From positions 1-44,799 of IMG/VR virus record IMGVR_UViG_3300009374_000868: a DNA stretch of 44,799 nucleotides. One strand, given 5' to 3'. Numbering within the stretch: position 1 is the stretch's first letter; each line of letters begins with the position of its first letter. The translations under genes were made by a program, and so were the position numbers. This stretch comes from a virus. This document shows positions 8,415 through 44,799 of this stretch, piece by piece. The notes under the pieces are model-generated. The model did no database searches and had not been told where the DNA came from. It saw nothing but the letters and a program-made list of their open reading frames with translations.

Positions 8415-9299
8415 CTACAGAGTCTCGAGGGCTTCCTCAAGAGACTCGTCCAGCAGGTGAGAATAGATCTGCGTGGTGGCAATAGAAGCATGTCCGAGCG
8501 CCTGTTGAACGACAAGGATGTTCGAGGTGCGAGCATACAAACCGGTTGCGAAACTGTGCCTGAGAGAATGGGGTGTGATACGCTTGTTGATTCCAGCTTT
8601 GGCTATCCACTGATCAATACGGCGTTGGATTTGTCGTGTAGTAATTCTCTTCTGCAACTGGCTGAGGAAGAGCGCCTGGTTTTCAGTGAATACCTGCTTG
8701 CGTCCTTTCAGATAACGATGCAGGATTGTACGCAGCTTGGTGTTGAGAAAGCGATTGACAATCTGTCCACCTTTGGCTTGAATCGTGATTTTCTTCTCCA
8801 GCAGATTAACATCAGTGAAGTTCAGGTTAACCAGTTCGGCCAGTCTAATACCGGTCTGCAGGAAGAGGTTGACGATCACCAGATCTCGCTTTGCCTGCCA
8901 GCCTTTCTGGGATCGGATAGTCTTCAGAAGAACACGTTTTTCGTCCTCGATCAGAAATACCGGAGGTTTTCTGTTATTGCGTTTGATCTGAATCCCGATG
9001 GCGGGATTATGATCGATCTTAGCAGTGTCAGTCAACCAGCGGAAGAATCCTTTGATCGAAGCCCGTGTGCGATTGATGGAAGAGGTCTGCTTTGGTTGAC
9101 CATTGGATTTGTTGATTACAGGTTCCGAGAGAAAGAAGCCATCAAAATCGGTGGATGTTATATCGCGGGTGTTGCAATCGTTACCCAGATGATTGAGCAA
9201 CAGGTTCAGATCTCGCTGCTGTGCTCCAATCGTGTGTGGAGACCTGTCGTTTGCAAGTTGGTGATCCATGAACTGTTTGATATTGTGATCAAGCGTCAT
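8415..9299 (-). CDS. int: Tyrosine recombinase (phage integrase, XerC/D-like)
   Basis: A 294-aa site-specific recombinase with an N-terminal SAM-like core-binding domain (about 1-100) and a catalytic domain. The active-site set is complete: R152 (TGIRLAELVNL), K176 (QAKGGQ), H244 and R247 (HSLRHSFATGL), H270 (LGHAS) and nucleophile Y279 (TTQIYSHLL). It would integrate and excise the phage genome, which makes the phage temperate; a Xer-like dimer-resolution role is the alternative, given its small size. It lies on the minus strand and its start overlaps the stop of the 78-aa gene upstream (ATGA). No attP site could be identified by eye. Confidence 0.93.
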   Translation of the reverse strand: MTLDHNIKQFMDHQLANDRSPHTIGAQQRDLNLLLNHLGNDCNTRDITSTDFDGFFLSEPVINKSNGQPKQTSSINRTRASIKGFFRWLTDTAKIDHNPAIGIQIKRNNRKPPVFLIEDEKRVLLKTIRSQKGWQAKRDLVIVNLFLQTGIRLAELVNLNFTDVNLLEKKITIQAKGGQIVNRFLNTKLRTILHRYLKGRKQVFTENQALFLSQLQKRITTRQIQRRIDQWIAKAGINKRITPHSLRHSFATGLYARTSNILVVQQALGHASIATTQIYSHLLDESLEEALETL

Positions 9300-9532
9300 G
9301 ATTCGTTCTCCGGATTGAATTCGTCAAGAGGTTGCCAGCTCCATACCGACTGGCTGGTGATGAACAAATGTACTTTCTTGCCTAGGTATTCGCTGATTGG
9401 TTCCGTCATTCTGCGGTCACCGATAAGCTGGAAAGTCTCTCTGTTTTCTTGGAAGTCGACAATCGCAAGTGAGCTGTCATATCGGATTGACTTCACCTCA
9501 GCGATCCGTTCTTCAATTTCTTTTTCGGTCAT
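9296..9532 (-). CDS. Small hypothetical protein coupled to the integrase
   Basis: A 78-aa protein transcribed just before the integrase, with stop and start overlapping by 4 nt, so the two are probably co-translated. The N-terminus is a charged helix (MTEKEIEERIAEVKSI). The rest looks like a small beta-rich fold (AIVDFQENRETFQLIGDRR ... KKVHLFITSQSVW). No helix-turn-helix is visible. The position would suit a recombination-directionality factor or regulator of integration, but the sequence gives no direct support. Confidence 0.6.
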   Translation of the reverse strand: MTEKEIEERIAEVKSIRYDSSLAIVDFQENRETFQLIGDRRMTEPISEYLGKKVHLFITSQSVWSWQPLDEFNPENES

Positions 9533-9637
9533 GTTGAGTATCCTGCTGTCGCTTGAATTAGTTTCAAAATCTTCAGTCCAATGGTGCGGTGGGAAACGGA
9601 GAAAGTCAAGGCAGATTTGGATTAATGTGACGGTAAG

Positions 9638-11188
9638 ATGGTGAAAATGAATACAGATTTGTCGGCGTTATCCTCCCGCGACGAGAAGGCATTAATGAAA
9701 ATCCTAACCGATCCGGTGAGGTGGGGCGAGTTATTTCTATCAAACAGAGACGGCAGCTCGAGGCAGTTCTGGGATCATCAGAAAGAAGACCTGCGCTGCA
9801 AGTCAAAAAACATAATTCACCAGGATGGCCGGGATGTAGGCAAGTCGGTCTGCATTGTTACAGAACTGCTGCATTACTCATTCACAACCAAGGGCGGTAG
9901 CGGATTAGTGGCAGCTCCACACCAGGGGCATCTGGATACCCTGATCGATGAGTTTGAGTTTCAACTGGGTGAGAATCCAGATCTGATGTCCGCGATTGCC
10001 ATAAATAAATCCGGGCATTCTGCCATCACCCGCAAGCCCTATTTCAAGGCTCAGTTCATTTCGGGGACGGTGATTCACTTCCGACCGGGCGGGGATTACG
10101 GTAAGGCGTTCAGGTCTTTACACGTTGACCGAGTCTGGATGGACGAAGCTGCCTGGTTGCCGGAACAAGCCTGGCGTGCAATCAGACAGTGTTTGAACGC
10201 CGGTGGAAAATTCAGGATTTATTCCAATCCCAATGGGCTCAGGGATACAACATATTATCGATTGACGAAAGAAAGGAAACGTTGGAAGATTTTTCACTGG
10301 CCTTCGTCACTCAATCCAAGCTGGTCAGAGGATCGAGAACAGGAGATGCTCGATTTCTATGGTGGTCGAGTTACTCCCGGTTTTCAACATGAAGTGTTGG
10401 GAGAACATGGAAGACCATCCTACGGCGCTTTCAACCACGAGCAGTTTAAGCTCTGCCAGAAGATGTATGATGGCTATCGGGCAGTCAGTATTCCAGGTGA
10501 GGAATTGTCCGATTGCGATTCTGAAGATGAAGTCCGTGATCGGTTGGACCTGCTGATGTGTCTTGCCCCCGAAGATGGTCAGTTCTGGGTCGGAGCGGAT
10601 ACGGGATACACAAACGATCCTTCCGAGGTAACAGTCTGGCGTGAAGATGAAATCGGAGCGATGCGACTCGTGTTTCGTCTGCATGCGACCCATGTCCCCT
10701 ACCCGGCGCTGGCAGAGATATTAGCACTGATCGATCGTTACTACAATCCGCGCGGAATCGGGATTGATAACGGCGGGAACGGATTATCGATAGTTCAGGA
10801 TCTGAAAAACCTGGACAAGTTCCGTGGGCAGGATTTTGAAAACAAGGTGCGGGGATTCGATTTCGGAGGCGCAACTGTGATCGGCTATGATGACGACACC
10901 AAACCGGTTCGCAAACGAACTAAGGAATATATGACTTCCTTGATCAACCGAGCGCTCGCCAAACGCAAGGCAATCTTTCCCATCGATGACATAGATATCG
11001 AAAACGAGTTTACCACGCATACCTACACATTGCAGAACGGACGAGTGGTGTACTCAAAGGGAAATGATCATATCGTTGACTCGACTCGTTGCGCTTTTTT
11101 GAGAAGGGAAATAGAAAAGCTTGAGGGACTCGATCCGCATTACGAAGAAGTTTATGTCGCACCCATGGCGACGAATCCAATCTTTTAA
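9638..11188 (+). CDS. terL: Terminase large subunit
   Basis: The 516-aa packaging motor. The N-terminal ATPase has a variant Walker A, GRDVGKS (64-70), and Walker B VWMDEA (166-171). The C-terminal RNase H-like nuclease has GADTGYTNDPSEVTV (first Asp near 320), GIDNGGNG and a final acidic motif in HIVDSTRCAF. It would cut concatemeric DNA and translocate it through the portal. Starts at 9638 or 9647 are both possible. It is separated from the probable small subunit by the accessory block, but is followed closely by the endolysin-like and portal genes. Confidence 0.93.
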   Translation: MVKMNTDLSALSSRDEKALMKILTDPVRWGELFLSNRDGSSRQFWDHQKEDLRCKSKNIIHQDGRDVGKSVCIVTELLHYSFTTKGGSGLVAAPHQGHLDTLIDEFEFQLGENPDLMSAIAINKSGHSAITRKPYFKAQFISGTVIHFRPGGDYGKAFRSLHVDRVWMDEAAWLPEQAWRAIRQCLNAGGKFRIYSNPNGLRDTTYYRLTKERKRWKIFHWPSSLNPSWSEDREQEMLDFYGGRVTPGFQHEVLGEHGRPSYGAFNHEQFKLCQKMYDGYRAVSIPGEELSDCDSEDEVRDRLDLLMCLAPEDGQFWVGADTGYTNDPSEVTVWREDEIGAMRLVFRLHATHVPYPALAEILALIDRYYNPRGIGIDNGGNGLSIVQDLKNLDKFRGQDFENKVRGFDFGGATVIGYDDDTKPVRKRTKEYMTSLINRALAKRKAIFPIDDIDIENEFTTHTYTLQNGRVVYSKGNDHIVDSTRCAFLRREIEKLEGLDPHYEEVYVAPMATNPIF

Positions 11189-11598: not shown

Positions 11599-13164
11599 AT
11601 GAAGACTGATACGAAAACACCTCCTTCGCGGGGGAATGAAGCTGAAAACTTCAAGGCTGTCGATGCCATTGTAGTCGATTCAGAATTGATGGGGACCGCA
11701 GCTAATATCGCATCTGGTGTGTTCAGCTCTGAGTATGAGATAAAGGGTATCCCTTCAGACTGGAAAGAACGGGCGCGCAAGGCTTGGGAATATTATTGCG
11801 AAGAACCGATCGTTTCCAACACGATCAATACTTGGCGGACATTTGCCATTGGCGACCAAGTGAAGATCATATCAGATGATGAATCGGTTCGATCCGAGGG
11901 CACAGAGTTATTCAATATGCTCAATGTGAACCGATTTCTGAAAGACATGATTCAACAATTGCTGGTAAAGGGCGAATGCATTGGATACAAGCGTTACGGC
12001 TCGGACGGAAAAACTTCCAAGGGTGAGCATAACGACATTGTCAAGCTGATCTGTGTTAATCCTCCCTCAGTCGATCTTGAATTTGAGAATGGAGAACTTG
12101 TTAAGGCGATCCAGAAACCGGAAACGGAAAGTGGTACCACCGGAGATGAAATTGATCTTCCACTTGACCAGATGATCCACCGCAAATGGAACGCGCCACA
12201 GTTTTCGCAGCGAGGCAATTCTATGGTGACACCGGCGTTCGAATCAATTGAACTACTCAGGGATTATCGAAGGGCACAACGCGCCATTGCCAAGCGCTGG
12301 ACGACACCCCTTCGTTTCATTCTGGTCGGTGGTAAGTACGGCGATAAAGTAATCATGCCCACCCAGAAAATGATCTCAACCATCCGCGACCAGATTAATA
12401 AGATGGATTTAAAATCGGGTCTGGTAGTGCCGTTTTATGTACGAGCCGAAACCTATGGCACCGAGGGACAGGTTCTGAATACCGAGGACAAGGTCAAAGA
12501 GGTCAAGGAGGATATCATCGTGGCTCTCGGTGTTGCCAAGTCTCTCGTCACAGGTGATGGACCTAACTTCGCAACCGCGTCAATCGCCTTTCAGAAAATG
12601 GTCATCATGCTGAAGGAGATCAAGCAGGTGGCACGCGAGATTCTCAACTGGGTATTCAATGACTGGAAGGAGATGAAGGGCTATTCCGAAAATGAAATCC
12701 AATACATCTTCTCCGACGTTGATCTGACCAACGAAATTGATGTCAAGAAACTACTGATCGAACTTTACGACCGCAATCTGATATCCAAAAATACCATTCA
12801 GACCAAGATGGACTTGAATCCCGATGTTGAAAAGTCTAATCGCACCAAGGAGGGCACACTGGTCGACATGTCCTGGGACATCAAGGATATTGTTTCGCTC
12901 GTGCAGATGGGAGTTATGTCGGTGCAGACGGCGCGTGAGATGCTGGGCATGGACAAGGTGAAAGAGGACTCCCGCGTACTGAAGCAGGAGAAATCAGAGT
13001 CTGAAGGAATGTATGCATCTGCAAGTGAAGATCATATTTGTGACGAGTGTGGATTCTTTGATGCTGAGAATAACCATTGCACCGTTACAGATGAAGAACG
13101 ACGATTCGATCAAGTTGCGTGCAGGCAATTTCTCGGGGGCGAAAGTGTGGAGATGGCAGATTGA
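11599..13164 (+). CDS. Portal protein with a C-terminal Cys cluster
   Basis: A 521-aa protein at the portal position between terminase and MuF, with the usual mixed alpha/beta body: RARKAWEYYCEEPIVSNTINTW near the start, a GECIGYKRYG strand, the clip/stem-like LLRDYRRAQRAIAKRW and helices through about 460. It would form the dodecameric channel at the capsid vertex. Unusually, the last 45 residues hold C-x2-C-x9-C-x13-C (HICDECGFFD ... HCTVTDEERR ... VACRQF), which looks like a small metal-binding knuckle. The gene overlaps the MuF start by 4 nt. Confidence 0.85.
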   Translation: MKTDTKTPPSRGNEAENFKAVDAIVVDSELMGTAANIASGVFSSEYEIKGIPSDWKERARKAWEYYCEEPIVSNTINTWRTFAIGDQVKIISDDESVRSEGTELFNMLNVNRFLKDMIQQLLVKGECIGYKRYGSDGKTSKGEHNDIVKLICVNPPSVDLEFENGELVKAIQKPETESGTTGDEIDLPLDQMIHRKWNAPQFSQRGNSMVTPAFESIELLRDYRRAQRAIAKRWTTPLRFILVGGKYGDKVIMPTQKMISTIRDQINKMDLKSGLVVPFYVRAETYGTEGQVLNTEDKVKEVKEDIIVALGVAKSLVTGDGPNFATASIAFQKMVIMLKEIKQVAREILNWVFNDWKEMKGYSENEIQYIFSDVDLTNEIDVKKLLIELYDRNLISKNTIQTKMDLNPDVEKSNRTKEGTLVDMSWDIKDIVSLVQMGVMSVQTAREMLGMDKVKEDSRVLKQEKSESEGMYASASEDHICDECGFFDAENNHCTVTDEERRFDQVACRQFLGGESVEMAD

Positions 13165-14027
13165 ATCAGGCAGAACAAATCCAACAAGCCGTCCTGTGGA
13201 GTCTTCATTCGCGCGACCTTTACACTGAGCGACAGGTCAACACAATGCTGAAATCTCTCCGCATAGCTGAGATGCATGTCAAATCACAACTGGTTGAAAT
13301 CGGCGAGAAAAAGCTCCTGAAGAAAGGTCTTGAGGTTCGTCGTGAACAACTTCGCGGTATCCAGAAAGGAATCGATAAGATAATCGGTGACCTGAAAAGT
13401 GACCAGACTGTGATCATGAAAAACGCTGTCAGGGATTCATTCCGGAACGGCATTACCGGCAGCATCGGAGAATTTAGCGAACTGAAATTTCCACATTATG
13501 AGAACTTATCTCACGAAGACAGAGTCAAGTTGGCTGGACAGGTGATGAGTTTGACTGATCGATCGGCATTGGACTTCCTCGTTAATTACGACCTTCAACT
13601 GCTGGGCAATGTCACACGAGAGCTGGCAGACAATATCAAGCAGCAGATATCTGTAGGCATCGTGAGCGGAGATTCGATTGCCAAGATTGGAGAAAAGATT
13701 GGAGGGATAATTACCGATCCCAATGAGTTTCGACTCGTCGGCAAGACCGTATTCAAGACAGCACAGACGAGAGTTGAGGTAATTACCAGGACTGAGACAC
13801 TGCGAGCTTTCGGACAGGGACGAAATAAGTTTTACGACAGGATCGGCGTGAGAAGAGTTGTCTGGGTGACAGCCGGTGATGAACGCACCTGTCCTGAATG
13901 CGGTCCACTTGACGGCAAGGAGTTTCCAATCGATCAAGCGCCCCCAATTCCGAAGCATCCGCAATGCCGTTGTACAACATTTGCAGCTCGTGCACGGATT
14001 TGCCGGGCAGGACAACCGGTGCATTAA
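13161..14027 (+). CDS. Mu gpF-like head morphogenesis protein
   Basis: A minor head protein of the MuF family. The family signature is clear at the C-terminus: WVTAGDERTCPECGPLDGKEF, then PIPKHPQCRC, a Cys/His cluster shared with Mu gpF and SPP1 gp7. The N-terminal part is helical. I place the start at TTG 13161: it overlaps the portal stop (TTGA), has GGAG 8 nt upstream, and reads MNQAEQIQQAVLWSLHSRD, giving 288 aa. The ORF is open back to an ATG at 13119, which would mean a 46-nt overlap with no clear ribosome site. It is expected to bind portal and capsid and may be injected. Confidence 0.88.
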   Translation: MNQAEQIQQAVLWSLHSRDLYTERQVNTMLKSLRIAEMHVKSQLVEIGEKKLLKKGLEVRREQLRGIQKGIDKIIGDLKSDQTVIMKNAVRDSFRNGITGSIGEFSELKFPHYENLSHEDRVKLAGQVMSLTDRSALDFLVNYDLQLLGNVTRELADNIKQQISVGIVSGDSIAKIGEKIGGIITDPNEFRLVGKTVFKTAQTRVEVITRTETLRAFGQGRNKFYDRIGVRRVVWVTAGDERTCPECGPLDGKEFPIDQAPPIPKHPQCRCTTFAARARICRAGQPVH

Positions 14028-14029
14028 TA

Positions 14030-17000
14030 ATGACAAATCCAACCACATATCTCCACACCTGGGCGATAGCCATTCAGGCTGCATCGAAGAAGGAAAACTT
14101 CGATTGCATCCTCGTGCCATCCGAAATATCTGAGATGGCAACCAAGAAACATGGCGAAGCGGTTAAGGTCGGGAAGGCAGTTTCTGAGGGGGAGTTCGAG
14201 AAACTGACAATCAAACAGTTGCAGAAGCTTGCCCAAGCCAACAGCATATCGATTGCCCGCACCAAGAAGGACTTTATCAAGCTGTTGAAGCCCCTGGAAC
14301 CAGATATAGACTTGGACATGATGAAGGGAGCGGAACTCAAATCAATTATCAAGAAGCACAAAATTGGCGCTCTGCGATCTAAAGACGAATTGATTGCTCT
14401 GCTGAAAAAGAAACTTACTGAAAAAGCTGTGCTGGAGAAAAGCAAGGAACTCGTAGGCAAGCAGATAAAAGCTCTCAAACAGAAGATCTCGATTCACCTG
14501 GATCAACTGCCCGGGTTGAAACCACAGGAATTCAAACTTGCACAAAACCACTTCGAGAAGGTTTCAGAAGCTCTTGCTGAAGCAAAATCTCTTCTTCCGG
14601 AAATTGAATGGTCGGCGCTGAAACAGCAGTATGAATATGCTCGCAGTTCATTCGTCCAGACGGTGAAAGCCCTGAAGGGCAAGGACCTGAAGACCATCGC
14701 AAAACAGGCAAAGTTGAAACATTACCAGTGGGCATCGAAAGAGGATCTGATCACCCTCATGACTTCTGATGATCCGGTGGCTATTATTATGGCAAAGGAT
14801 AACATTGAGGTTAAATGGGCAAAGTGGTCTGAGAAGCATGGAAAGAAGTCTAAAGCTCCAAAGCCAGCCGTCAAACCCACTACAGTGAAACTGCTTAAAC
14901 CTCTGTCACACTCCTCGCATTTCACCAACCCTGATGAAGCCTGGAAGAAGTTTTCGAAAAGTAATCCGTTCAGTTACCAGGGACGAGCTGACATAGAGGG
15001 GGCGCACACCAAGTATTTCTTCACCGATAAAAGCGACAACAAATGGCTTTTCAAACCAGTGTCGGAAGAATTTCGGGGGCACGGTGATGATGTGGCTTAT
15101 CGCATTGGCAGGCTGATCGATCCCGAATCAATCGAAGTCCGTTTCATTGAACTCGATGTTCCAGGCAGAGGGAAGCTCAAGGGCTCGATCCAGAAATGGC
15201 GAACCGACCTACAGAAGGAGTTTGATTTTCGTGATGCAATAGTTGAGAATCTGTCTGGTTCTGAGCTTGAACAGTTGCAGCGCGAGCATGTTATCGACTG
15301 GCTGATTTCCAATCATGACGCTCACTGCAAGCAGTTCCTGCGGTTGAAAGATGGACAGGTCAAGGGGATTGATAAAGGGCAACTGTTTAAATTCATCGGT
15401 GATGATCACCTGTCAATTAATTACCATCCTAACAAAGCGTTTGGAGAGCGTGAACCCTTTTACAATACAGTGATGCGTGCCTGGCGCGATGGCAAGATCG
15501 AGATGGACCTACAGGCGACATACAAATATATCAGTAGTATTGAATCAATCACAGATGATGCCTACATCGATTTACTCAAGCCATACGCAGAGAGGAGGTT
15601 TACCAAGCAACAACTGAAATTGAAGCACTTCTACGAAACTGCGCTTATCCGCAAGAACAACCTTCGACAAGACTTTGAAGAATTCTACACTGAACTTCTC
15701 CGGAAAAGAAAAAAAGACAAAAAGGCAGTATTCCATTTCGATGTTGATGGAAAGGAATTGCCAGATGGAAAAGCTGCAAAAGGATACAGGCATATTCCTG
15801 AAGACGCGGAAATCCTGGTTAAAGAAGCGAAGGAATCAGGTTGGCAGGGCAAATCACTCCCCGTGGATGTGGATGATATCGAGGATCAGAATGTGCTGCT
15901 CTATACTGAAAAGGTAAAGAGTAAGACTCGAACAGTGATGCGTTTGAAGATTCGACCAGAAGCAGAAAAAAAGTTGCTCGCAAACCTCTCAACCGGACCG
16001 GGAGACACTATCGGGCAGGTCGCAGGTCAAGCTATGGCTGATGATCTGTTCTACGATGACATCCTGGCTGCGGTCAAGTCAATCAATTATCACATCAATC
16101 AGGGAGACTTCAATTTCAATAAGTCAACAATCGACCAGGCATTATCTCATCGGCTTGCTTTATCCAAATTGACAGGAATGCGAGATCGAGAATTGAGGTC
16201 TTTGGCAAAATCTTATCTGAAGATCCTTGATGAACTCGATGTTTCTATCTCAGCAAATGGTAGAAAGAAAATCAGGGCGTTTAAACAGTATTTGAAAAAA
16301 GAAAAACCTGTCAAACCATCAGGTGATAAGATTCCAACTGTGAAAAGAAATACCGTTTATGGAGACCAAAAGGTCGTTCGGAAAGGCAAGATAGTGGTTA
16401 TGGATGAGGATGTAACACTCAGAAAATTGCATTCCAGTTTCAAAGCTAAAGGTTTGGAATACAAGATCGACCTGGGAGACGGTGTTGAGGGAATCTACCG
16501 CCCGTGGATTAAGGAAAATTATTACTCGCACCAGGGACAGCTTGAACTTCGAATCCTCTCGGATTGCAACCCTGAATCTGCAGAACGGTTACTCGATGGG
16601 CTTGAGCGTCTCGGCATCGAAGCGTCTTTCTCATCGTCAGTTGATGCGGAATATATGTATCTCCTGAAACAAGCATACATCCTGAATGAGGATAAATCCC
16701 CTGCCTGGAAGAAGGTGCTCAAGAGTTTAGATACTCAGAAAGCCTCCAAAGCTGAAAGAGTCAAAACCCTTCGGCAGTATTGGTCAGATCATTTGGGTGT
16801 CAAAGATGTTACTCGAATTCCAGGATACGACCCCAAAGGCAAATATTCCATCATGTCATCCGCCTGGAAAAAGAAAAAGGATGCTGGATACCGACACCAG
16901 CTCAGGTTCGATATTTCAGATGACCACATGAAACGTGAACTGGGTGATTATGGATTATATCACCGATTGACGAATGGAAGCGACGTCGCAAGCGTCCTGG

Positions 17001-17488
17001 ATGAGATTCTGGATCATAACGGAGCCTTGATCTCAACTGTTGAAAAAATGAGGGTGGGGATTCCGGTGGGTGGCATGAGTCCCAGTTCTGACATGGGAAC
17101 TGGGGGCGCCAGTTATTTCTTCACACGCATTCGCAAGCTTCCCGGAGTGGGATACGAGCGTGGTGATACCGGCTTCTACTTCAAACCGCACCTGCTGCGC
17201 CGAATGGATGCGATCACCTATGAAGGTGATAAATACGGGCGTGTCACCGGCAATCATGTCAGGCAGCATCGAAAGGTTAATATTACTGATTACAAATCCA
17301 TTGCATCCCGGAAAAGCTCTGATGAGACGATCTTCAAGAATGAAGTGACGCTGTTGGATAACCTGCAGATGGTTACAGTTAGCAACGAATCTGAAAAACG
17401 CAGAGTGCTGAATGTCTTCAGGAAGCATGGTGTGACTCGTTTGCCGGATGGCAGACAGGTCAAGGAAATCGTAAGGACGACGAATTAG
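14030..17488 (+). CDS. Giant multidomain head-module protein (SAP-like repeats, kinase-like, ART-like); candidate polyvalent injected protein
   Basis: 1152 aa from ATG 14030, just after MuF; the frame is open back to ATG 13964 inside MuF. N-terminal part: three SAP/HeH-like helical motifs, LTIKQLQKLAQANSISIARTK (59-79), LKSIIKKHKIGALRSKDELIALL (103-125) and LKTIAKQAKLKHYQWASKEDLI (about 220-241). Middle (about 300-470): a region like HipA/PI-kinase folds, with KWLFKPV, then SNHDAHCKQF (427-436; candidate catalytic Asp and His) and GIDKGQLFKF (446-455; candidate metal-binding Asp). C-terminus (about 976-1120): LYHRLTNGS, then MGTGGASYFFTRI, then FKNEVTLLDN, which could be the H-Y/S-E layout of an ADP-ribosyltransferase. 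Long charged linkers separate the parts. Large multi-enzyme proteins after MuF are known as polyvalent proteins carried in the virion. The kinase and ART calls are inferences from motif shape only. Confidence 0.75.
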   Translation: MTNPTTYLHTWAIAIQAASKKENFDCILVPSEISEMATKKHGEAVKVGKAVSEGEFEKLTIKQLQKLAQANSISIARTKKDFIKLLKPLEPDIDLDMMKGAELKSIIKKHKIGALRSKDELIALLKKKLTEKAVLEKSKELVGKQIKALKQKISIHLDQLPGLKPQEFKLAQNHFEKVSEALAEAKSLLPEIEWSALKQQYEYARSSFVQTVKALKGKDLKTIAKQAKLKHYQWASKEDLITLMTSDDPVAIIMAKDNIEVKWAKWSEKHGKKSKAPKPAVKPTTVKLLKPLSHSSHFTNPDEAWKKFSKSNPFSYQGRADIEGAHTKYFFTDKSDNKWLFKPVSEEFRGHGDDVAYRIGRLIDPESIEVRFIELDVPGRGKLKGSIQKWRTDLQKEFDFRDAIVENLSGSELEQLQREHVIDWLISNHDAHCKQFLRLKDGQVKGIDKGQLFKFIGDDHLSINYHPNKAFGEREPFYNTVMRAWRDGKIEMDLQATYKYISSIESITDDAYIDLLKPYAERRFTKQQLKLKHFYETALIRKNNLRQDFEEFYTELLRKRKKDKKAVFHFDVDGKELPDGKAAKGYRHIPEDAEILVKEAKESGWQGKSLPVDVDDIEDQNVLLYTEKVKSKTRTVMRLKIRPEAEKKLLANLSTGPGDTIGQVAGQAMADDLFYDDILAAVKSINYHINQGDFNFNKSTIDQALSHRLALSKLTGMRDRELRSLAKSYLKILDELDVSISANGRKKIRAFKQYLKKEKPVKPSGDKIPTVKRNTVYGDQKVVRKGKIVVMDEDVTLRKLHSSFKAKGLEYKIDLGDGVEGIYRPWIKENYYSHQGQLELRILSDCNPESAERLLDGLERLGIEASFSSSVDAEYMYLLKQAYILNEDKSPAWKKVLKSLDTQKASKAERVKTLRQYWSDHLGVKDVTRIPGYDPKGKYSIMSSAWKKKKDAGYRHQLRFDISDDHMKRELGDYGLYHRLTNGSDVASVLDEILDHNGALISTVEKMRVGIPVGGMSPSSDMGTGGASYFFTRIRKLPGVGYERGDTGFYFKPHLLRRMDAITYEGDKYGRVTGNHVRQHRKVNITDYKSIASRKSSDETIFKNEVTLLDNLQMVTVSNESEKRRVLNVFRKHGVTRLPDGRQVKEIVRTTN

Positions 17489-17958
17489 TGAAAGAAAAGA
17501 TTAGACAAGCACAGGAAGAATTACAGACTCGAATAGACAAGTTCCTGACTGATTGCACCAAATGCCGGATTACGGATGGTAAAGAACTTGTCACATCATT
17601 CTACTTGGCATCGTTCGAAGTCCTGAAAGCAGTGCCATTCTTCTCGCGTAAGACTGGCAGAGTGTTACGGTTTAATTACTGGTGCTGGTTTCAGGAAGTT
17701 CATTTCGAAGCAGGAATGAACCGGTCACACTTGATTTTAATAAAAGAGAGCGAATGGTTGAATGAACGCAATATTGAGATTATTACAGATGGTTACAAGA
17801 TTCTAATCAGCGCAATCGATCCACCCGAAGTAGATCTGGATGCTAATGAGGTTTTCAAAGAATGGAAGTCGTTTCAGGAAGCAAATCCCTGGCTGAATGA
17901 AATTACAAACCAGCTGAGGGAGGAGTTTCAGGATATGGTGAAGAGGGCGATATCATGA
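17488..17958 (+). CDS. Hypothetical protein, 156 aa
   Basis: The start is GTG at 17488, overlapping the upstream TAG by one base, with AAGGA upstream; it is clearly coupled to the giant protein. The N-terminus is helical and contains C-x2-C (DCTKCRITDG). The middle is aromatic-rich (VLRFNYWCWFQEVHFEAGMNRSH). The C-terminus is acidic and helical. There is no known domain. It may assist the upstream protein, since the two are translated together. Confidence 0.7.
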   Translation: MKEKIRQAQEELQTRIDKFLTDCTKCRITDGKELVTSFYLASFEVLKAVPFFSRKTGRVLRFNYWCWFQEVHFEAGMNRSHLILIKESEWLNERNIEIITDGYKILISAIDPPEVDLDANEVFKEWKSFQEANPWLNEITNQLREEFQDMVKRAIS

Positions 17959-18281
17959 GATTGAGATATTTCATTGACTTTCGGTACGATGACAAGGTTC
18001 TGCAATTCCTACCAATCGGAATCTGGATACAGGATATGGGTGATCTTGGGATCGATATGTACTATCCGGACGAGACTTCAGATGAATACTGGGAAGCGAT
18101 GTGGGTGATGAACCGGCTGGTTGAGGACGATTTGAATACGCCACTTAATTTACTTGAATACCATCGGGCAAGGGCTGGATATAAAGGAATGCGATCACGG
18201 ACATTTGAAGAGGAGACTGATTTGAATTTGGATGAATTCATGAGGAAGACTCTGAGTAAATATATGGATGGTAGGAGATAG
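17955..18281 (+). CDS. Hypothetical acidic protein, 108 aa
   Basis: Overlaps the previous gene by 4 nt (ATGA). The protein is rich in Asp, Glu and aromatic residues (IDMYYPDETSDEYWEAMW), with a helical C-terminus (NLDEFMRKTLSKYMDG). It is strongly acidic in the middle. I do not recognise it. DNA mimicry or a binding partner of a neighbour would fit its composition, but that is speculation. Confidence 0.65.
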   Translation: MRLRYFIDFRYDDKVLQFLPIGIWIQDMGDLGIDMYYPDETSDEYWEAMWVMNRLVEDDLNTPLNLLEYHRARAGYKGMRSRTFEEETDLNLDEFMRKTLSKYMDGRR

Positions 18282-18613: not shown

Positions 18614-20158
18614 TCAACCAATCAAATGGTATTCTGTGATTTCCTGATGATTAGAATAATCTATTTCACCATAATAACCAAACATTCCCTTCATTGCTTC
18701 TACATGAGGAATCGGTTTATTTGTTTTTTGGTCTACGACTTCCGCTATCCAAAATACTGGATTCGTATTCGATCTTGGTTCTATGGTACATTGCACCCCT
18801 CTTATTCTTGAATATGCCTGCTCAGCAACTTCTTTCATAGAAAAAGATCCATCGTCCGCTAAGTCCTTTATTAACCAAGTTAATATGTGACCCATAAATT
18901 CCTCAGCATGACTCTCTAGTGGAATTATACAACGGTTCCAAAAACAACCTTTACTTTCTTTCCGACACATTCTTCCAAGTTGCACAAGGCAATCTAACGT
19001 AGCAACCACAGTTTGTCTTGAATCAATTTTCGCAGCATTACAACCGAGGTAAGAAAGTGTTTCCATGCAACGATAAACAAAATGATCATGATTTGTTGTT
19101 AAGGCCTTATATCCTAAATTTTTTATAAGAAATGCATATCCAGCAATGTTCCACTGATCGAGACTATTTCCATTGGTCTTTTTTGCATCTTCCTCTATCG
19201 CGTGAATTGCTAGTTCAGTAACGGCATGAATTGTATTTAACACTCTCATCGGCTCATCACTCGTTTTCGCTTCTAAAGTCAATTCACCGAGATGTAGAAT
19301 GTCTTTCATAATGCTCTTCGCAAGACTACTAAGTGGTTTTGCCAAGGTCTTAGGTTTTCTGAGTAAAGCGCATAGTTTTGACGTTAATACCTCTAAATAT
19401 ATACCCTCCTCATCCTCATTTGAAATCCAGTTGATGAGTGCTCCAAAGCGTTTGTGCGTAATTGATCTTACACCCTCTAATTCTTTGTAATCACCTTCTT
19501 GCTTTGATTCAATCTCGTATGACAAAACCAAAATATTTAATATCTGATCCATACACTTGAGAAAAACAGGATAATCATTATTGCTGAATGATTGTTTAAA
19601 TACAACTGCTACTTTATCCCAAACGTCATTCTCAGGAAGTCCAAGTGATTCTGGTAGAAAGGAATATTCATGCTCTGGAATATCAAATACTTTCTTGCTT
19701 TCGAGAAATTTATTATGTCGTTTTACTTCTTGTGAAGTTATCTCATATAAGTTATCCACATATCTTAGGATTAATTTATTTTTACAAACATTGTTTAGAT
19801 ATTTAACCGGATCAAGATAGTTCATGGTTAATATCGCATTGTCAATAGATGACCAAAATATAAAGGGCAGAATCCAGAATGCAATATGCGAGTATAACGA
19901 TGGAAGTACTAAAAATAAAATTAAAGGCACGAAAGGAAAAAACAACAAAAGGGTGATATTAAACCATTGACGTTTAGTTATTTCTACCAATATGGGTTTA
20001 TATCGAGAAAGCTGATATCCAAAGAAAGTAAAATTTATGGAGAAAATAGCAATAACGAAATTAGCGCTAATTAACCATCCCGAAAACTGATCGATATCTT
20101 TACCTATCGAGAGAAAGATTAATGCAATTTCAATTACGATAAAGAAAAGAAGTCTCAT
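18614..20158 (-). CDS. Membrane-anchored hypothetical protein, AT-rich accessory gene
   Basis: 514 aa. Hydrophobic segments at about 2-19, 28-49, 66-88 and 91-108 suggest three or four membrane helices at the N-terminus. A large, mostly helical soluble part of about 390 aa follows, with several Cys (CMDQILNIL, LGCNAAKID, GRMCRKESKGCFWNRC). It has a good Shine-Dalgarno sequence (GAGGGG) before the ATG. The gene is opposite to the late operon and visibly more AT-rich than its neighbours, and AT-rich noncoding DNA flanks it, so it looks like a separately acquired moron. The layout would fit a membrane-bound defence or superinfection-exclusion protein, but no family is recognised. Confidence 0.75.
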   Translation of the reverse strand: MRLLFFIVIEIALIFLSIGKDIDQFSGWLISANFVIAIFSINFTFFGYQLSRYKPILVEITKRQWFNITLLLFFPFVPLILFLVLPSLYSHIAFWILPFIFWSSIDNAILTMNYLDPVKYLNNVCKNKLILRYVDNLYEITSQEVKRHNKFLESKKVFDIPEHEYSFLPESLGLPENDVWDKVAVVFKQSFSNNDYPVFLKCMDQILNILVLSYEIESKQEGDYKELEGVRSITHKRFGALINWISNEDEEGIYLEVLTSKLCALLRKPKTLAKPLSSLAKSIMKDILHLGELTLEAKTSDEPMRVLNTIHAVTELAIHAIEEDAKKTNGNSLDQWNIAGYAFLIKNLGYKALTTNHDHFVYRCMETLSYLGCNAAKIDSRQTVVATLDCLVQLGRMCRKESKGCFWNRCIIPLESHAEEFMGHILTWLIKDLADDGSFSMKEVAEQAYSRIRGVQCTIEPRSNTNPVFWIAEVVDQKTNKPIPHVEAMKGMFGYYGEIDYSNHQEITEYHLIG

Positions 20159-20425: not shown

Positions 20426-23400
20426 ATGAACACCGAATTCAAACGCGTTCGCTTCATCCTCGAAGCGGAGGCTGAGTTTTGCCTAGCACGGGATACAGAG
20501 GACAATATCGAAGCAGCGCAGGATCTGCCTCCGTACGTTACCAATTACATCGGTTCCAAACAGAAACTGGTGGATTGGATCTGGGTGCATACTCCAGACG
20601 GCGTAAAGAGTGCGCTCGATGCCTTTTCAGGTAGTGCGGTGGTTGGTTACATGTACAAGGCTAAAGGGCTGCGCGTGATTGCCAACGACCGGTTGCATTA
20701 CTGTTACCACATCGCCAGAGCGATCATCGAGAACAACTCCGTGACGGTTTCGGGCGAAGAACTCGACGCCCTGCTGAAATCCAATTCCAAGGCAGGCGAC
20801 TTCGTCCAGGAAACCTTCCGAGGGAAGTTCTTCCAATCCGGCGTTCACCAGATAATCGATAATATACGGTTAAACATTGATGATCTACAAGGATATAAGA
20901 AGGACATTGCGCTTTTTGCCCTAGCTAAGACCTGTATTTCAGGTTCTGGCAGCTATGGTCACTTCGCATCGACATCTAAGGGAAGCGGAAATCGGCAAGC
21001 GGATACACCCAAAGCATTTACCGACCGCTTCCGGGATAACATCGTTCGGGTAAACAGCCTGGTCTTTGACAACGGCAAAGAGAACAAGGTTTTCTGCAAG
21101 GAAATCCTCGAGGTCATTCCTGATGTCAAGGTTGACCTGGCATATTTCGATCCTCCCTATGCTACAGAATTTTCAACTACAAACTATGCGACTTCTTACC
21201 ACTTCGTTGAAGGCTTAATGACTTACTGGAAGGGGCTTGAGATCGATGAATCGAGCCGAGTGAAGAAGTTCCTCACCGACCATCAGACGGTCACGCAGTC
21301 CAATTCCGAAGAGTTCTTCGATGGATTCCTGGACAAGTCAAAGGGAATCAAACATTGGATTATCTCGTACCGGGATCATGCCTATCCGAATGAAGCAAAG
21401 ATGAAGAAGCTGATCAATAGGCATGGCAAGAGTTCCCGGATGTTCAGCAGGGATCACTCTTACAGTATGGCAGGTCAGAACCGCTCTGGCGAAGCATCGC
21501 ACGGCAAAGAACACATCTTTGTCTGCAGCAATCAGATAGCTGCTAAAGCGGACATGTTAGAAGAACCATTCATGACAGTTGCTGACTTGCAAGGTGAAGC
21601 AGCTAAGGATTCTGACGCTCGTGTTACTGCCTTCATGGGTTCGAAGCATGACATGCTGGATTGGATTTGGAACTACACTCCAGAAGGTGTGAAATCAGCT
21701 CTCGACCTGTTCAGTGGCGGAGCCAATGTCGGTTATTTCTACAAGAAGAAGGGATTACGGGTCATCTCGAATGATCTGCTGGACTATCCCTATCACATCG
21801 CAAGGGCGGTAATCGAGAACTCATCGGTCACTATTTCGGATGAGGATATCGAAGCGCTCCTTGAACCGAACTCGTCGGCAGGTGATTTCATAATAAAGAC
21901 ATTTTATGGGTATTACTACACCAAGCCAATACTTGAATTCCTCGAAAACGCTTATGCGAAAATCCAGCAACTCACGGGATATAAAAAAGATATTGCACTC
22001 TTTGCACTTGGTCGTACCTGTCAAATCCGTGCTTGCTTTGGTGAATATTCCCGTTCGAAGAAGAGTTTGACCGAACCGATTCCCGATGACGCCAACAAGT
22101 ATCCCAATTCCCATATTGGTAATCCTTCCACTTCTGAATTCAAGGAACTGTTCGTCAAGTGTATTCATAATGCTAACGCGCTGGTGTTCGACAACGGACA
22201 GGAATGCAAGGTCTATCATCAGGAAGCGCTGAGTCTTCTACCGAAAGTTAATGTCGATCTTGTTTACGCTGATCCACCTTATATGACACAGTTCGGATTC
22301 AACGACTATGAGGACAAGATGCACTTTGTGGAAGGATTGATGACCTATTGGAAGGGCAAAGAAATCCTAGATAATAAACGCCGCAATTACAAGTCAAAAA
22401 CTAAATATAACAAGGACAGCATCCGGCAGTTAATTCAGGGTTTCGTTGAAAGATCTGCTCAGGGTAATTCCAGGCTCCTCATGAGTTATCGGGATAAAGC
22501 TTATCCCACTGCAGCAGAATTAAAAGAAATGTTTGGGGAGAATTACGACGAAGTCGATTTCAGACGACGAGCTGTTTCCTATGGAATCGCTAAGTATGCT
22601 GGTGAAGGATCAGGACGCGACGCTCAGGAGTATTTGATCATTGCGTCAAAACCGAAAAAGCAGAGTTCAGCCAAAGCAGCGATTAATATAACCCGTTCCT
22701 GTCACACATCCCTCACTGGTAACATAATCCTCCCAGAAGGTTTGTCCTCTGAAGCAATAACCCGGAAGCCAGTTGGTGACCAGAAATTCACTTTCATTTT
22801 AACCCATGCCGGCACCAACCTCAATGGGGATCATTTCAGTGTTGACGAGCTTCGCAAAAACCATGAAAGCGCAATCAATACAAAGATCGATCTTAAGCAT
22901 TCACAGGATTTGACGGATATCGTGGGTGGAGTTACCGAGGCTCGGTTCAAGGAAGAAGATAATGGTTTTGTCGAGTGCGATGGTGAACTCTACACCGAGG
23001 ACAATCCGTTTGCCCGTCTAGCGCACAAGCTGATCCGTAAGGGTATCGTGAAGCAGGTCTCGATGGAGTGTGATTATGAGGAAGGTGAGTGTTCGATCTG
23101 CAAGAAACGCATTAAATCGAAGAAGAATTATTGTCTGCACCTCAAGAAATATAAAGGGCAGGAATATCAAGGCAGGAAGGTTTACGAGATCCTGCACAAC
23201 ATAACATTCACTGGGATGGGACTCCTGGACCGCAAGGGAGCTGATCCCGGTGCGAAAATATTAAGTGTAGCAAAAAACACATTAAGCATAGAGGATAACA
23301 ATATGGAAACGATTGCCGATTTCCAGTCCTATTTGACCGCTAAAAAGATTAACGAGGAGGTCTGGCCGTTGACCAGCGCTTTCGAGGGATACATCAGGGA

Positions 23401-23959
23401 ACTGCTGAAAAAATTTGGTTCGGAAGAGATGAGTGCCAATGATCTGAACTCGTCAATCACCACAGGACTGGAAGTGTTCAGCAACAAGGTTAAGGGTCTG
23501 GTCAATGTGGCGAAAAGCGAGGCGGCAAACAAAGCCTCTGCTGGAGTCGAGGAAGACCTGAAGAAAGTTCAGCAGGAGAATGAGGACCTGAAGAAACAGG
23601 TCGAAGATCTGCAGAAGAAAATCGAGGCTCATGAAACCGAGAAACGCAAGGCTGAACGAAATACCCGAGCCGCTAAACTGGTCGAAACCTGGGAACAGCG
23701 CGGACGGAAGTTCAAGGATGAAGACGAACGAACGGCTGAGATCGAACGCCTTGCCGGTCTGGATGACAGCGCTTTTGATGCTGCCAGATCAGTAATTGAT
23801 GCTTTACCGGAAAACAAGGCTGAAGGCGCGGAACACAAGGATAAGGTGCTACGCAGTGATGCCGGTATCGATCCTGCTGTAGTGGATGATAAAACAGGCA
23901 ACCTGGCAACGCGGCTCAGCAAGGGATTGCGCGACGTTCGTGAAGCCCAGATTACATAA
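20426..23959 (+). CDS. Tandem D12-class DNA adenine methyltransferases fused to prohead protease and scaffold
   Basis: One uninterrupted 1177-aa frame. Residues 36-370 form a D12-type N6-adenine methyltransferase with AdoMet motif DAFSGS (65-70) and catalytic DPPY (242-245). Residues 398-742 form a second, paralogous one with DLFSGG (427-432) and DPPY (616-619); both share the stretch HFVEGLMTYWKG. Residues 785-945 form a prohead serine protease-like domain, with candidate catalytic His in IDLKHSQD (H825) and Ser in KQVSMEC (S879), and an inserted C-x2-C-x10-C-x-H knuckle (889-905). From 960 on it is a scaffold-like region with a coiled coil (about 1050-1085). No good ribosome site precedes ATG 20426. 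The upstream 267 nt are AT-rich, with no gene. The methyltransferases could protect DNA from restriction; fusion to the head-assembly protein suggests they enter the prohead. Confidence 0.88.
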   Translation: MNTEFKRVRFILEAEAEFCLARDTEDNIEAAQDLPPYVTNYIGSKQKLVDWIWVHTPDGVKSALDAFSGSAVVGYMYKAKGLRVIANDRLHYCYHIARAIIENNSVTVSGEELDALLKSNSKAGDFVQETFRGKFFQSGVHQIIDNIRLNIDDLQGYKKDIALFALAKTCISGSGSYGHFASTSKGSGNRQADTPKAFTDRFRDNIVRVNSLVFDNGKENKVFCKEILEVIPDVKVDLAYFDPPYATEFSTTNYATSYHFVEGLMTYWKGLEIDESSRVKKFLTDHQTVTQSNSEEFFDGFLDKSKGIKHWIISYRDHAYPNEAKMKKLINRHGKSSRMFSRDHSYSMAGQNRSGEASHGKEHIFVCSNQIAAKADMLEEPFMTVADLQGEAAKDSDARVTAFMGSKHDMLDWIWNYTPEGVKSALDLFSGGANVGYFYKKKGLRVISNDLLDYPYHIARAVIENSSVTISDEDIEALLEPNSSAGDFIIKTFYGYYYTKPILEFLENAYAKIQQLTGYKKDIALFALGRTCQIRACFGEYSRSKKSLTEPIPDDANKYPNSHIGNPSTSEFKELFVKCIHNANALVFDNGQECKVYHQEALSLLPKVNVDLVYADPPYMTQFGFNDYEDKMHFVEGLMTYWKGKEILDNKRRNYKSKTKYNKDSIRQLIQGFVERSAQGNSRLLMSYRDKAYPTAAELKEMFGENYDEVDFRRRAVSYGIAKYAGEGSGRDAQEYLIIASKPKKQSSAKAAINITRSCHTSLTGNIILPEGLSSEAITRKPVGDQKFTFILTHAGTNLNGDHFSVDELRKNHESAINTKIDLKHSQDLTDIVGGVTEARFKEEDNGFVECDGELYTEDNPFARLAHKLIRKGIVKQVSMECDYEEGECSICKKRIKSKKNYCLHLKKYKGQEYQGRKVYEILHNITFTGMGLLDRKGADPGAKILSVAKNTLSIEDNNMETIADFQSYLTAKKINEEVWPLTSAFEGYIRELLKKFGSEEMSANDLNSSITTGLEVFSNKVKGLVNVAKSEAANKASAGVEEDLKKVQQENEDLKKQVEDLQKKIEAHETEKRKAERNTRAAKLVETWEQRGRKFKDEDERTAEIERLAGLDDSAFDAARSVIDALPENKAEGAEHKDKVLRSDAGIDPAVVDDKTGNLATRLSKGLRDVREAQIT
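23303..23959 (+). CDS. Nested scaffold protein from an internal in-frame start
   Basis: Within the fusion gene, ATG 23303 is preceded by GAGG with 8-nt spacing (GAGGATAACAATATG), right after the protease domain ends (GADPGAKILSVAK). Translation here gives a 218-aa scaffold: a helical start, a Lys/Glu/Gln-rich coiled coil (DLKKVQQENEDLKKQVEDL) and an acidic end. The same nested arrangement of protease and scaffold is known for lambda C/Nu3 and Mu I/Z. The internal ribosome site is a better match than that of the full-length ORF, so the scaffold is expected in excess over the fusion protein. Confidence 0.65.
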   Translation: METIADFQSYLTAKKINEEVWPLTSAFEGYIRELLKKFGSEEMSANDLNSSITTGLEVFSNKVKGLVNVAKSEAANKASAGVEEDLKKVQQENEDLKKQVEDLQKKIEAHETEKRKAERNTRAAKLVETWEQRGRKFKDEDERTAEIERLAGLDDSAFDAARSVIDALPENKAEGAEHKDKVLRSDAGIDPAVVDDKTGNLATRLSKGLRDVREAQIT

Positions 23960-44172: not shown

Positions 44173-44280
44173 GTTTCTGCGTTAAGTTCTTCAACATGCC
44201 TTGATTATAGTCCCCCACCTCTTAAATTCGTCCTGCCATTAAGTAAAGGCATAACAACAAATTAAATCTTGGAGAGTACC

Positions 44281-44799
44281 ATGAGTACTGAGAAAAAACA
44301 ATTAGGTGACAGAGTTCTGATCACCGCTGGTCCCAACAAAGATAAACTTGGGAAACTGGTCGAAAAGAAACGCGGTGGCTGGGTTGTTGAATTGGACGAC
44401 GGGCAGAGAGTCTCCGTATCCTTCCCCATGATTGCTGTGGTGAGGTCGGTTTCTGAAATGGAGAATGAGGGTACAAATGAATCCACAGAGGAGCAGACTG
44501 AAGATACGGCAAATGAAGAGGAATCAAGTGATCAATCTGTTGCCTCCGAGACCACCAATTCTGAGCAGGATATCACTCAATTGTCCGTGAAGCAGCTTCA
44601 GGAACTGGTAAAGCAGCGTGGCATCGGTATCGCACGTACAAAGTCCGATTTCTTAAGGATTATCAAGGAGAAGAATCCGGATGAGGATTTGGATCAACTT
44701 GTTGGCAAAGTACTGTTCAATCGGGTGAAAGAACTTCACATATCGAGACTGCGCAACAAGCAGGACTTGATTAATCTATTAAACAACGACGAGAGATGA
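44281..44799 (+). CDS. KOW-like plus SAP-like protein
   Basis: 172 aa from ATG 44281 (GGAGAG 5 nt upstream); TGA is at the very end of the window. The N-terminal part (GDRVLITAGPNKDKLGKLVEKKRGGWVVELDDGQ) resembles a KOW/SH3-like motif. A long acidic, low-complexity linker follows (about 60-100; Glu, Thr, Ser). The C-terminal 70 residues are two SAP-like helical motifs: LSVKQLQELVKQRGIGIARTK and VKELHISRLRNKQDLINLL. These match, in order, the first two motifs in the giant head protein (14030-17488). The gene stands behind the terminator in its own unit. A nucleic-acid-binding role is likely; the partner is unknown. Confidence 0.7.
   Translation: MSTEKKQLGDRVLITAGPNKDKLGKLVEKKRGGWVVELDDGQRVSVSFPMIAVVRSVSEMENEGTNESTEEQTEDTANEEESSDQSVASETTNSEQDITQLSVKQLQELVKQRGIGIARTKSDFLRIIKEKNPDEDLDQLVGKVLFNRVKELHISRLRNKQDLINLLNNDER

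What the first reader, a model, noticed from the sequence alone, without database searches (positions are those of the whole stretch)
14030..17488. Candidate polyvalent effector protein beside MuF
The 1152-aa protein carries SAP-like motifs, a kinase-like signature (SNHDAHCKQF then GIDKGQLFKF) and a C-terminus with LYHRLT, TGGASYFFTRI and FKNEV, which could be an ADP-ribosyltransferase. Polyvalent proteins with such enzymes occur after MuF in some phages and are thought to enter the host with DNA. The large gap between domains (about 470-970) has no recognised fold and may hide more enzymes.
Basis: partly seen in the sequence, partly recalled or inferred. Interest (0 to 1): 0.82.

Follow-up and report, generated by a model that had tools for sequence, protein, structure and literature searches.

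The report
Phage head-linked kinase and ADP-ribosyltransferase
This phage gene, next to a head protein and fused to that protein in most relatives, encodes a large protein that probably travels with the virion and enters the host, and that carries two intact-looking enzymes: a lipid-kinase/HipA-type kinase and an ADP-ribosyltransferase whose nearest solved structures modify DNA.

Summary
The ORF is real (14030-17488, 1152 aa) and under purifying selection.

Residues 286-565 form a kinase domain of the PI4K/PI3K-HipA-CtkA-Fam20C type (best Z 15.8, PI4KIIalpha). K342, H429-D430 and D448 are invariant where aligned.

Residues ~931-1152 form an ART fold. The top seven PDB entries are all DarT (Z 9.7-10.4), and every other chain listed is also an ART. 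H978 and E1099 are invariant (88/88). No sequence profile links this domain to DarT or any ART family.

Residues 588-930 have no identified fold. Three SAP/Rho_N-like motifs lie at about 59-246.

In 52 complete ORFs the same chain follows a MuF domain in one protein. In this window's clade MuF is a separate, adjacent gene. Gene order (portal, MuF, effector, head genes) is conserved.

I read it as a virion-associated, probably injected two-enzyme effector. MuF-linked effectors are a known kind, so this is a new variant. Delivery, activity and targets are inferred.

The parts
14030..17488 (+). Effector gene, 1152 aa: 3x SAP-like motif, PI4K/HipA-type kinase, MID region of unknown fold, DarT-like ART
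13161..14027 (+). MuF minor head protein, separate gene here (TTG start overlapping the portal stop, TTGA); fused to the effector in 52 complete ORFs of relatives
   Evidence: start codon is inference
14204..14293 (+). SAP/Rho_N-like motif 1 (residues 59-88)
   Evidence: AF2 helix-loop-helix; SAP/Rho_N Pfam hits in relatives
14321..14410 (+). SAP/Rho_N-like motif 2 (residues 98-127)
14672..14767 (+). SAP/Rho_N-like motif 3 (residues 215-246)
   Evidence: phrog_2250/2724 weak hits here
14885..15724 (+). PI4K/PI3K-HipA-CtkA-type kinase domain (residues 286-565)
15311..15337 (+). Kinase catalytic loop N428-H-D430-x-H432-xx-Q435-F
   Evidence: H429 and D430 73/73 aligned, N428 71/73, H432 72/73
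15365..15379 (+). GID448KG, metal-binding Asp of the kinase
   Evidence: D448 74/74 aligned
15791..16819 (+). MID region (residues 588-930), always with the ART, fold not identified
16820..17485 (+). DarT-like ADP-ribosyltransferase domain (residues 931-1152)
   Evidence: AF2 pLDDT 85.7, pTM 0.84; DarT Z 10.4
16961..16963 (+). H978, motif I of the ART
   Evidence: 88/88
17114..17128 (+). Y1029-F-F-T-R1033, motif II of the ART
   Evidence: Y 88/90, R 90/90
17324..17326 (+). E1099, predicted catalytic glutamate of the ART
   Evidence: 88/88; sits on DarT's catalytic Glu in a weak hhalign
11599..13164 (+). Portal protein
   Evidence: phrog_2739 E 3.1e-47
17955..18281 (+). 108-aa gene downstream of the effector, conserved in 68 loci; possible partner, chaperone, head or immunity protein
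   Evidence: function is inference

Best explanation
The protein is a MuF-linked, virion-associated 'polyvalent' effector. It is made from the head operon directly after portal and MuF, from a gene that follows the MuF stop closely and is probably translationally coupled to it, and is taken into or onto the phage head through its MuF partner and possibly its DNA-binding SAP motifs. On infection it enters the host with the DNA. There a PI4K/HipA-type kinase phosphorylates a host target, and a DarT-like ART transfers ADP-ribose from NAD+ to a host macromolecule, preparing the cell for the phage. Shown here: the ORF, the two folds (predicted models), invariance of the kinase and ART core residues, fusion to MuF in relatives and the conserved head-gene order. 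Inferred: packaging, injection, catalytic activity and both targets. A nucleic-acid target for the ART is my first guess, because DarT is the nearest fold and the chain carries SAP motifs.
For: Kinase fold: PI4KIIalpha Z 15.8 (237 aligned, rmsd 4.3), CtkA Z 14.1, Fam20C, HipT. 32 of 35 kinase members individually hit HipA_C (best E 1.1e-5) and 4 hit PI3_PI4_kinase. K342 72/72, H429 and D430 73/73, D448 74/74 aligned. ART fold: all seven top entries are DarT (Z 9.7-10.4) and every chain listed below is an ART. H978 88/88, E1099 88/88, R1033 90/90. Linkage: 52 complete ORFs carry MuF-SAP-kinase-MID-ART in one chain. Where portal was found, the MuF/effector ORF is beside it in almost every locus, and g108 (68 loci), the MTase-head fusion (66) and MCP (45) belong to the same module. 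Purifying selection. Mycobacteriophage MuF-like proteins fuse the same kinase family to an unrelated R-S-E type ART, ADPrib_exo_Tox E 4.7e-16. A two-gene version occurs on Streptomyces plasmids beside replication-relaxation and ATPase genes.
Against: No virion proteomics, no activity assay, no known target. MuF and effector are separate genes in this window's clade, so covalent delivery by MuF is lost here. Sequence profiles do not join the ART to DarT (hhalign probability 3.5%) or to any Pfam/PDB family. HipA_C hits are below Pfam's gathering score. Most kinases carry Q435 where HipA-type enzymes have Asn. Macrodomain and NADAR genes were absent in 32 records and DraG was present in only one, so no immunity partner is visible in the window's phage.
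Confidence: 0.66

Rival explanations
1. A competition or lysogen-protecting toxin: a MuF-type polymorphic toxin that harms sensitive bacteria entered by the virion, with lysogens protected by an immunity protein such as the 108-aa g108 or 156-aa g156 product.
For: Temperate-phage MuF toxins with immunity genes are described (PMC5576092, PMC11699363). Copies lie in bacterial genome contigs, including Desulfobacterota and Gammaproteobacteria. A small gene follows the effector in 68 loci. MabR mycobacterial prophages share an ADP-ribosylglycohydrolase (PMC9434293), found here in McProf.
Against: In polymorphic toxins the C-terminus varies; here the MID-ART C-terminus is constant and the middle is swapped (kinase, Zeta toxin, NUDIX). 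No macrodomain or NADAR near the family and DraG in only 1 of 32 records.
Confidence: 0.17
2. A structural or assembly protein of the head in which the kinase and ART folds have become binding domains without catalysis.
For: Position among portal, MuF and capsid genes; strong conservation; the MID-ART part is constant.
Against: Active-site residues (K342, D430, D448; H978, E1099) are among the most invariant of all, in about 70-90 distinct copies spread over distant lineages, which is unusual for dead enzymes. Kinase and ART also occur as separate genes on plasmids without a recognised head module.
Confidence: 0.12
3. Chance or over-reading: kinase and ART similarity are artefacts of motif spotting and of a model of limited depth.
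For: Sequence searches of the single protein give only weak HipA_C and SCO1664 hits. The ART has no sequence hit at all.
Against: Kinase pLDDT is around 90 with Z up to 15.8, and many family members hit HipA_C independently. The separate ART model has pTM 0.84 and every chain listed in its structural match table is an ART.
Confidence: 0.04

Closest known systems
MuF-fused effectors / polyvalent proteins (Iyer et al. 2017, PMC5512222; NAD-ADPr survey 2022, PMC9503650)
   Same: Large multidomain protein tied to MuF in the head gene cluster, with ART and kinase-like enzymes proposed to enter the host with DNA
   Different: The kinase they describe in polyvalent proteins has lost its C-terminal subdomain and is of the Ser/Thr/Tyr type; this one is PI4K/HipA-type with a full helical C-lobe. 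The MuF-fused ARTs they name are Alt/VIP2 and N4-ART; this one is DarT-like in fold. 'HipA' occurs nowhere in either text
Mycobacteriophage McProf gp54 (MuF-like + ADPrib_exo_Tox) and Onyinye gp16
   Same: Homologous kinase domain (29-34% identity), pairing of kinase with an ART; McProf gp54 lies directly after portal
   Different: Their ART is the R-S-E type ADPrib_exo_Tox, not this H/E DarT-like one; their kinase is not annotated
DarT (DarTG toxin, DNA ADP-ribosyltransferase)
   Same: Nearest solved fold; a similar order of conserved H, R, YFxxR and E (my reading)
   Different: No detectable sequence-profile relationship, no macrodomain/NADAR partner, embedded in a phage head-linked multidomain protein
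Phage T4 Alt
   Same: Works-like model: head-packaged, injected ART (PMC5512222)
   Different: Different ART family (RSE clade), no kinase
Pseudanabaena phage Pan1 head morphogenesis protein
   Same: MuF plus part of MID plus the same ART (29% identity; HMM E 1e-48)
   Different: No kinase or SAP match

Membership tests
MuF-linked polyvalent effector (PMC5512222) | MuF domain fused to, or encoded with, enzymatic domains | tested here: met
   Adjacent in the window; fused in 52 complete relatives
MuF-linked polyvalent effector (PMC5512222) | Several enzymatic domains in one polypeptide | tested here: met
   Kinase and ART folds in one chain
MuF-linked polyvalent effector (PMC5512222) | Packaged in the virion and injected | not testable with these tools
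   Inferred from context only
PI3K/PI4K-HipA-CtkA kinase superfamily | Bilobal kinase fold of this type | tested here: met
   Z 15.8 PI4KIIalpha, 14.1 CtkA, 12.9 Fam20C
PI3K/PI4K-HipA-CtkA kinase superfamily | Conserved ATP-binding Lys, catalytic-loop Asp and metal-binding Asp | tested here: met
   K342 72/72, D430 73/73, D448 74/74 of aligned copies
HipA toxin family (Pfam HipA_C) | Passes Pfam HipA_C gathering score (30.5 bits) | tested here: not met
   14.1-18.0 bits for this protein; not filed as HipA
HipA toxin family (Pfam HipA_C) | Phosphorylates GltX or another translation target | not testable with these tools
   Needs biochemistry
ADP-ribosyltransferase superfamily | ART fold | tested here: met
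   All listed PDB matches are ARTs
ADP-ribosyltransferase superfamily | Conserved catalytic Glu and motif-I residue in the right order | tested here: met
DarT family (PF14487) | Sequence-profile similarity to DarT | tested here: not met
   hhalign probability 3.5%, P 0.012; DarT not among the Pfam hits of any of 45 members
DarT family (PF14487) | DarG macrodomain or NADAR antitoxin next door | tested here: not met
   0 of 32 records; some records are fragments
DarT family (PF14487) | ADP-ribosylates DNA bases | not testable with these tools
   Needs biochemistry
SAP domain | Passes Pfam SAP/Rho_N threshold | tested here: inconclusive
   Not in this protein; Rho_N passes in relatives L065 (35.8 bits) and L034 (25.2 bits); helix-loop-helix in the model

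The most novel reading that the evidence does not exclude
A phage carries a DarT-like nucleic-acid ADP-ribosyltransferase into the cell on its own virion, held by SAP motifs to the DNA and paired with a lipid-kinase/HipA-type protein kinase. This would be a virion-delivered counterpart of the DNA-modifying toxin that bacteria use against phages, with the ART part protecting or marking phage DNA or disabling host DNA.
Probability: 0.18. Interest if true: 0.85.

Novelty: new variant of a known kind. Interest (0 to 1): 0.6.

Why it matters
MuF-linked effectors are predicted widely but few have known enzymes or targets. This family is large (100 viral contigs for the C-terminal module), has two active-site sets that can be knocked out by single residues, and occurs as fused genes in genome assemblies named for cultured strains (Desulfofustis glycolicus DSM 9705, Ectothiorhodospira shaposhnikovii DSM 243, Desulfobulbus rhabdoformis DSM 8777, Desulfosarcina alkanivorans PL12). 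It also suggests that pairing one kinase with an ART happened with two unrelated ART types, which points to cooperation between phosphorylation and ADP-ribosylation in host takeover. If the ART acts on nucleic acid, it would mirror the bacterial DarTG defence.

Tried and rejected
Programmed -1 frameshift joining MuF to the effector: the effector is always in the -1 frame relative to MuF, but the upstream effector frame is stopped close to the junction in L009 and L089 and no obvious slippery heptamer is shared. Several members have TAATG or TGATG overlaps, so termination-reinitiation is more likely (by inspection). DarT membership by sequence: failed (the global hhalign run was also meaningless). 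Known fold or enzyme for MID 588-930: no consistent Pfam hit over 44 members. The PDB profile hits (OT3 7uek, de novo S836) look like amphipathic or designed-protein similarity, and the whole-model fold search was filled by the kinase, so this part is barely tested. Direct Pfam hits on P0001 such as MHC_I_3 are chance. Antitoxin/hydrolase partner near the phage genes: macrodomain and NADAR 0/32, DraG 1/32. One find_related scan with A1 reached only close relatives.

Full report
OBSERVATION. It sits after terminase, portal and MuF and before further head genes of a contractile-tailed phage: terminase phrog_2, sheath phrog_279, major head phrog_2522. The window is a 44.8-kb IMG/VR virus record. 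Against orthologue L008 (77% identical) dS is near saturation while dN is 0.14, ratio about 0.06, in every domain where it could be computed.

RELATIVES. Close full-length relatives number about ten. A scan with the C-terminal alignment found 100 viral contigs, of which 80 were kept, and 30 genome contigs, including Desulfobacterota, Gammaproteobacteria, Verrucomicrobiota-type bacteria and Ca. Hatepunaea meridiana. The last, from Ca. Electryoneota, is the closest at 89% in the ART domain, though its contigs are short and the binning is uncertain. An HMM survey of ORFs in these loci gave 52 complete ORFs with the order MuF-SAP-kinase-MID-ART, 12 untruncated ORFs without MuF in the same reading frame (loci of one contig counted more than once), and 19 untruncated MID-ART ORFs without this kinase. 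In several of the last, Pfam finds MuF and another cassette: Zeta toxin (L075), NUDIX (L085, where my MuF profile also scores), or weak HipA_C hits suggesting a diverged kinase (L077, L084, L087). So the constant part is MuF plus MID-ART, and the middle is exchangeable.

SPLIT FROM MuF. In the window's clade MuF ends 2 nt before the effector ATG, and several relatives show TAATG or TGATG overlaps. The same chain is fused elsewhere. This is best read as one gene split in two with coupled translation. A frameshift was considered and found unlikely (no shared slippery site; in-frame stops in L009 and L089).

KINASE. The AlphaFold model of the whole protein (48 sequences, mean pLDDT 84, pTM 0.49) contains a bilobal kinase at 286-565. 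Structural matches are PI4KIIalpha Z 15.8, CtkA 14.1, Fam20C 12.9, actin-fragmin kinase 11.6, VPS34 11.6 and HipT 10.6; Foldseek also lists HipA. 32 of 35 members hit HipA_C one by one, best E 1.1e-5, and 4 hit PI3_PI4_kinase, though below curated cut-offs for this protein. K342, H429, D430 and D448 are invariant where aligned. Position 435 is Gln in 67 and Asn in 6 copies. I therefore file the domain under the PI3K/PI4K-HipA-CtkA superfamily, not under HipA.

ART. The C-terminal 228 residues modelled alone (45 sequences) gave pLDDT 85.7 and pTM 0.84. The seven best PDB entries are DarT1/DarT2 structures (Z 9.7-10.4, 143-155 aligned, rmsd 3.0-3.6), followed by SopF, Tpt1, OspC3, CopC, CteC and pertussis-type toxins, all ARTs. 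Among viral models the hits include the insect-virus ORF32/422L type and a siphovirus minor capsid protein. In 91 distinct copies H978 and E1099 never vary where aligned; R1033, D1021, D1060 and D1067 do not vary either; Y1029 is Ser only in the two Streptomyces plasmid copies; R1008 is replaced in about eight copies; E1105 is mostly Ser. Published DarT residues are H13, R51, Y71, M78, H119 and E160 (PMC9967889) and DarT1 R52, M71, N104, E152 (PMC11543638). My alignment by order (H978, R1008, Y1029-F-x-x-R1033, E1099 against DarT H, R, YFxxR, E) is a reading, not a test. A profile-profile run gave no significant score (probability 3.5%), but its only aligned block puts E1099 on the DarT catalytic Glu. 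Hence: ART superfamily yes, DarT-like in fold, DarT family no.

SAP AND MID. Three SAP-like repeats precede the kinase (residues 59-88, 98-127, 215-246 in the model). SAP and Rho_N score in relatives, with Rho_N above cut-off in L065 and L034. MID (588-930) is present wherever the ART is nearly complete, has a few invariant residues (G607, E618, D619, E874), and gives no usable family or fold match.

WIDER PATTERN. Mycobacteriophage proteins McProf gp54 and Onyinye gp16 join the same kinase to ADPrib_exo_Tox, the R-S-E type ART, and McProf gp54 is a VG15-type minor capsid protein right after portal. Streptomyces linear plasmids carry kinase (HMM E about 1e-40) and MID-ART (E about 1e-27 and 1e-22) as adjacent genes that both start MGTGSKSSHxSYAV, near a replication-relaxation protein and an ATPase, with an ADP-ribosylglycohydrolase about 5 kb downstream. 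The family therefore crosses phages and plasmids, as described for polyvalent proteins (PMC5512222).

FUNCTION. The best-supported model is a head-associated effector that enters the host with DNA and acts early through phosphorylation and ADP-ribosylation. Packaging, entry, activity and targets are inferred. The main rival is a toxin with immunity. Against that: the constant C-terminus and the absence of macrodomain and NADAR genes in 32 records, with DraG in only one. For it: the conserved small gene behind the effector (68 loci), which I could not assign.

LITERATURE. MuF-fused ARTs and polyvalent effectors are known (PMC5512222, PMC9503650, PMC5576092). I found no paper in the searched open-access library describing a HipA/PI4K-type kinase or a DarT-like ART on MuF. 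Subscription papers and preprints were not searched, so this is not proof of absence.

Noticed in passing
window 20426-23959 (+): 1177-aa ORF with two D12 adenine-methyltransferase stretches (E 1.4e-41) and a C-terminal part with weak head-protease/scaffold similarity; a related ORF lies downstream of the effector in 66 loci. A DNA methylase fused to a capsid-assembly protein would be a second polyvalent head protein.
   Followed up: partly
window 44269-44799 (+): ORF cut by the window end with a SAP-like stretch 40% identical to effector residues 43-126, and weak endonuclease VII family similarity.
   Followed up: no
window 18614-20158 (-): 514-aa ORF on the opposite strand inside the head operon with no family match; no homologue in the fetched loci, while L010 has a different minus-strand ORF in the same slot (8442-9860), so this may be an exchangeable cargo site.
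   Followed up: partly
L093 10219-15071 and L094 10228-15122: On two Streptomyces linear plasmids the kinase and MID-ART genes both start with MGTGSKSSHxSYAV, a shared N-terminal tag that may be a delivery or processing signal.
   Followed up: partly
L075, L085, L086: Relatives carry other enzyme cassettes in the middle: Zeta toxin (L075, E 9e-17), NUDIX (L085, E 1.3e-8) and an intein-like splicing domain next to the MuF part (L086, E 8.8e-6).
   Followed up: no
L155 (McProf 59078-59977): McProf, whose MuF-like protein carries kinase plus R-S-E ART, also encodes an ADP-ribosylglycohydrolase (E 1.1e-50), a possible protection of the lysogen.
   Followed up: no
window 17955-18281 (+): 108-aa gene right after the effector and g156, conserved in 68 loci, of unknown function.
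   Followed up: partly
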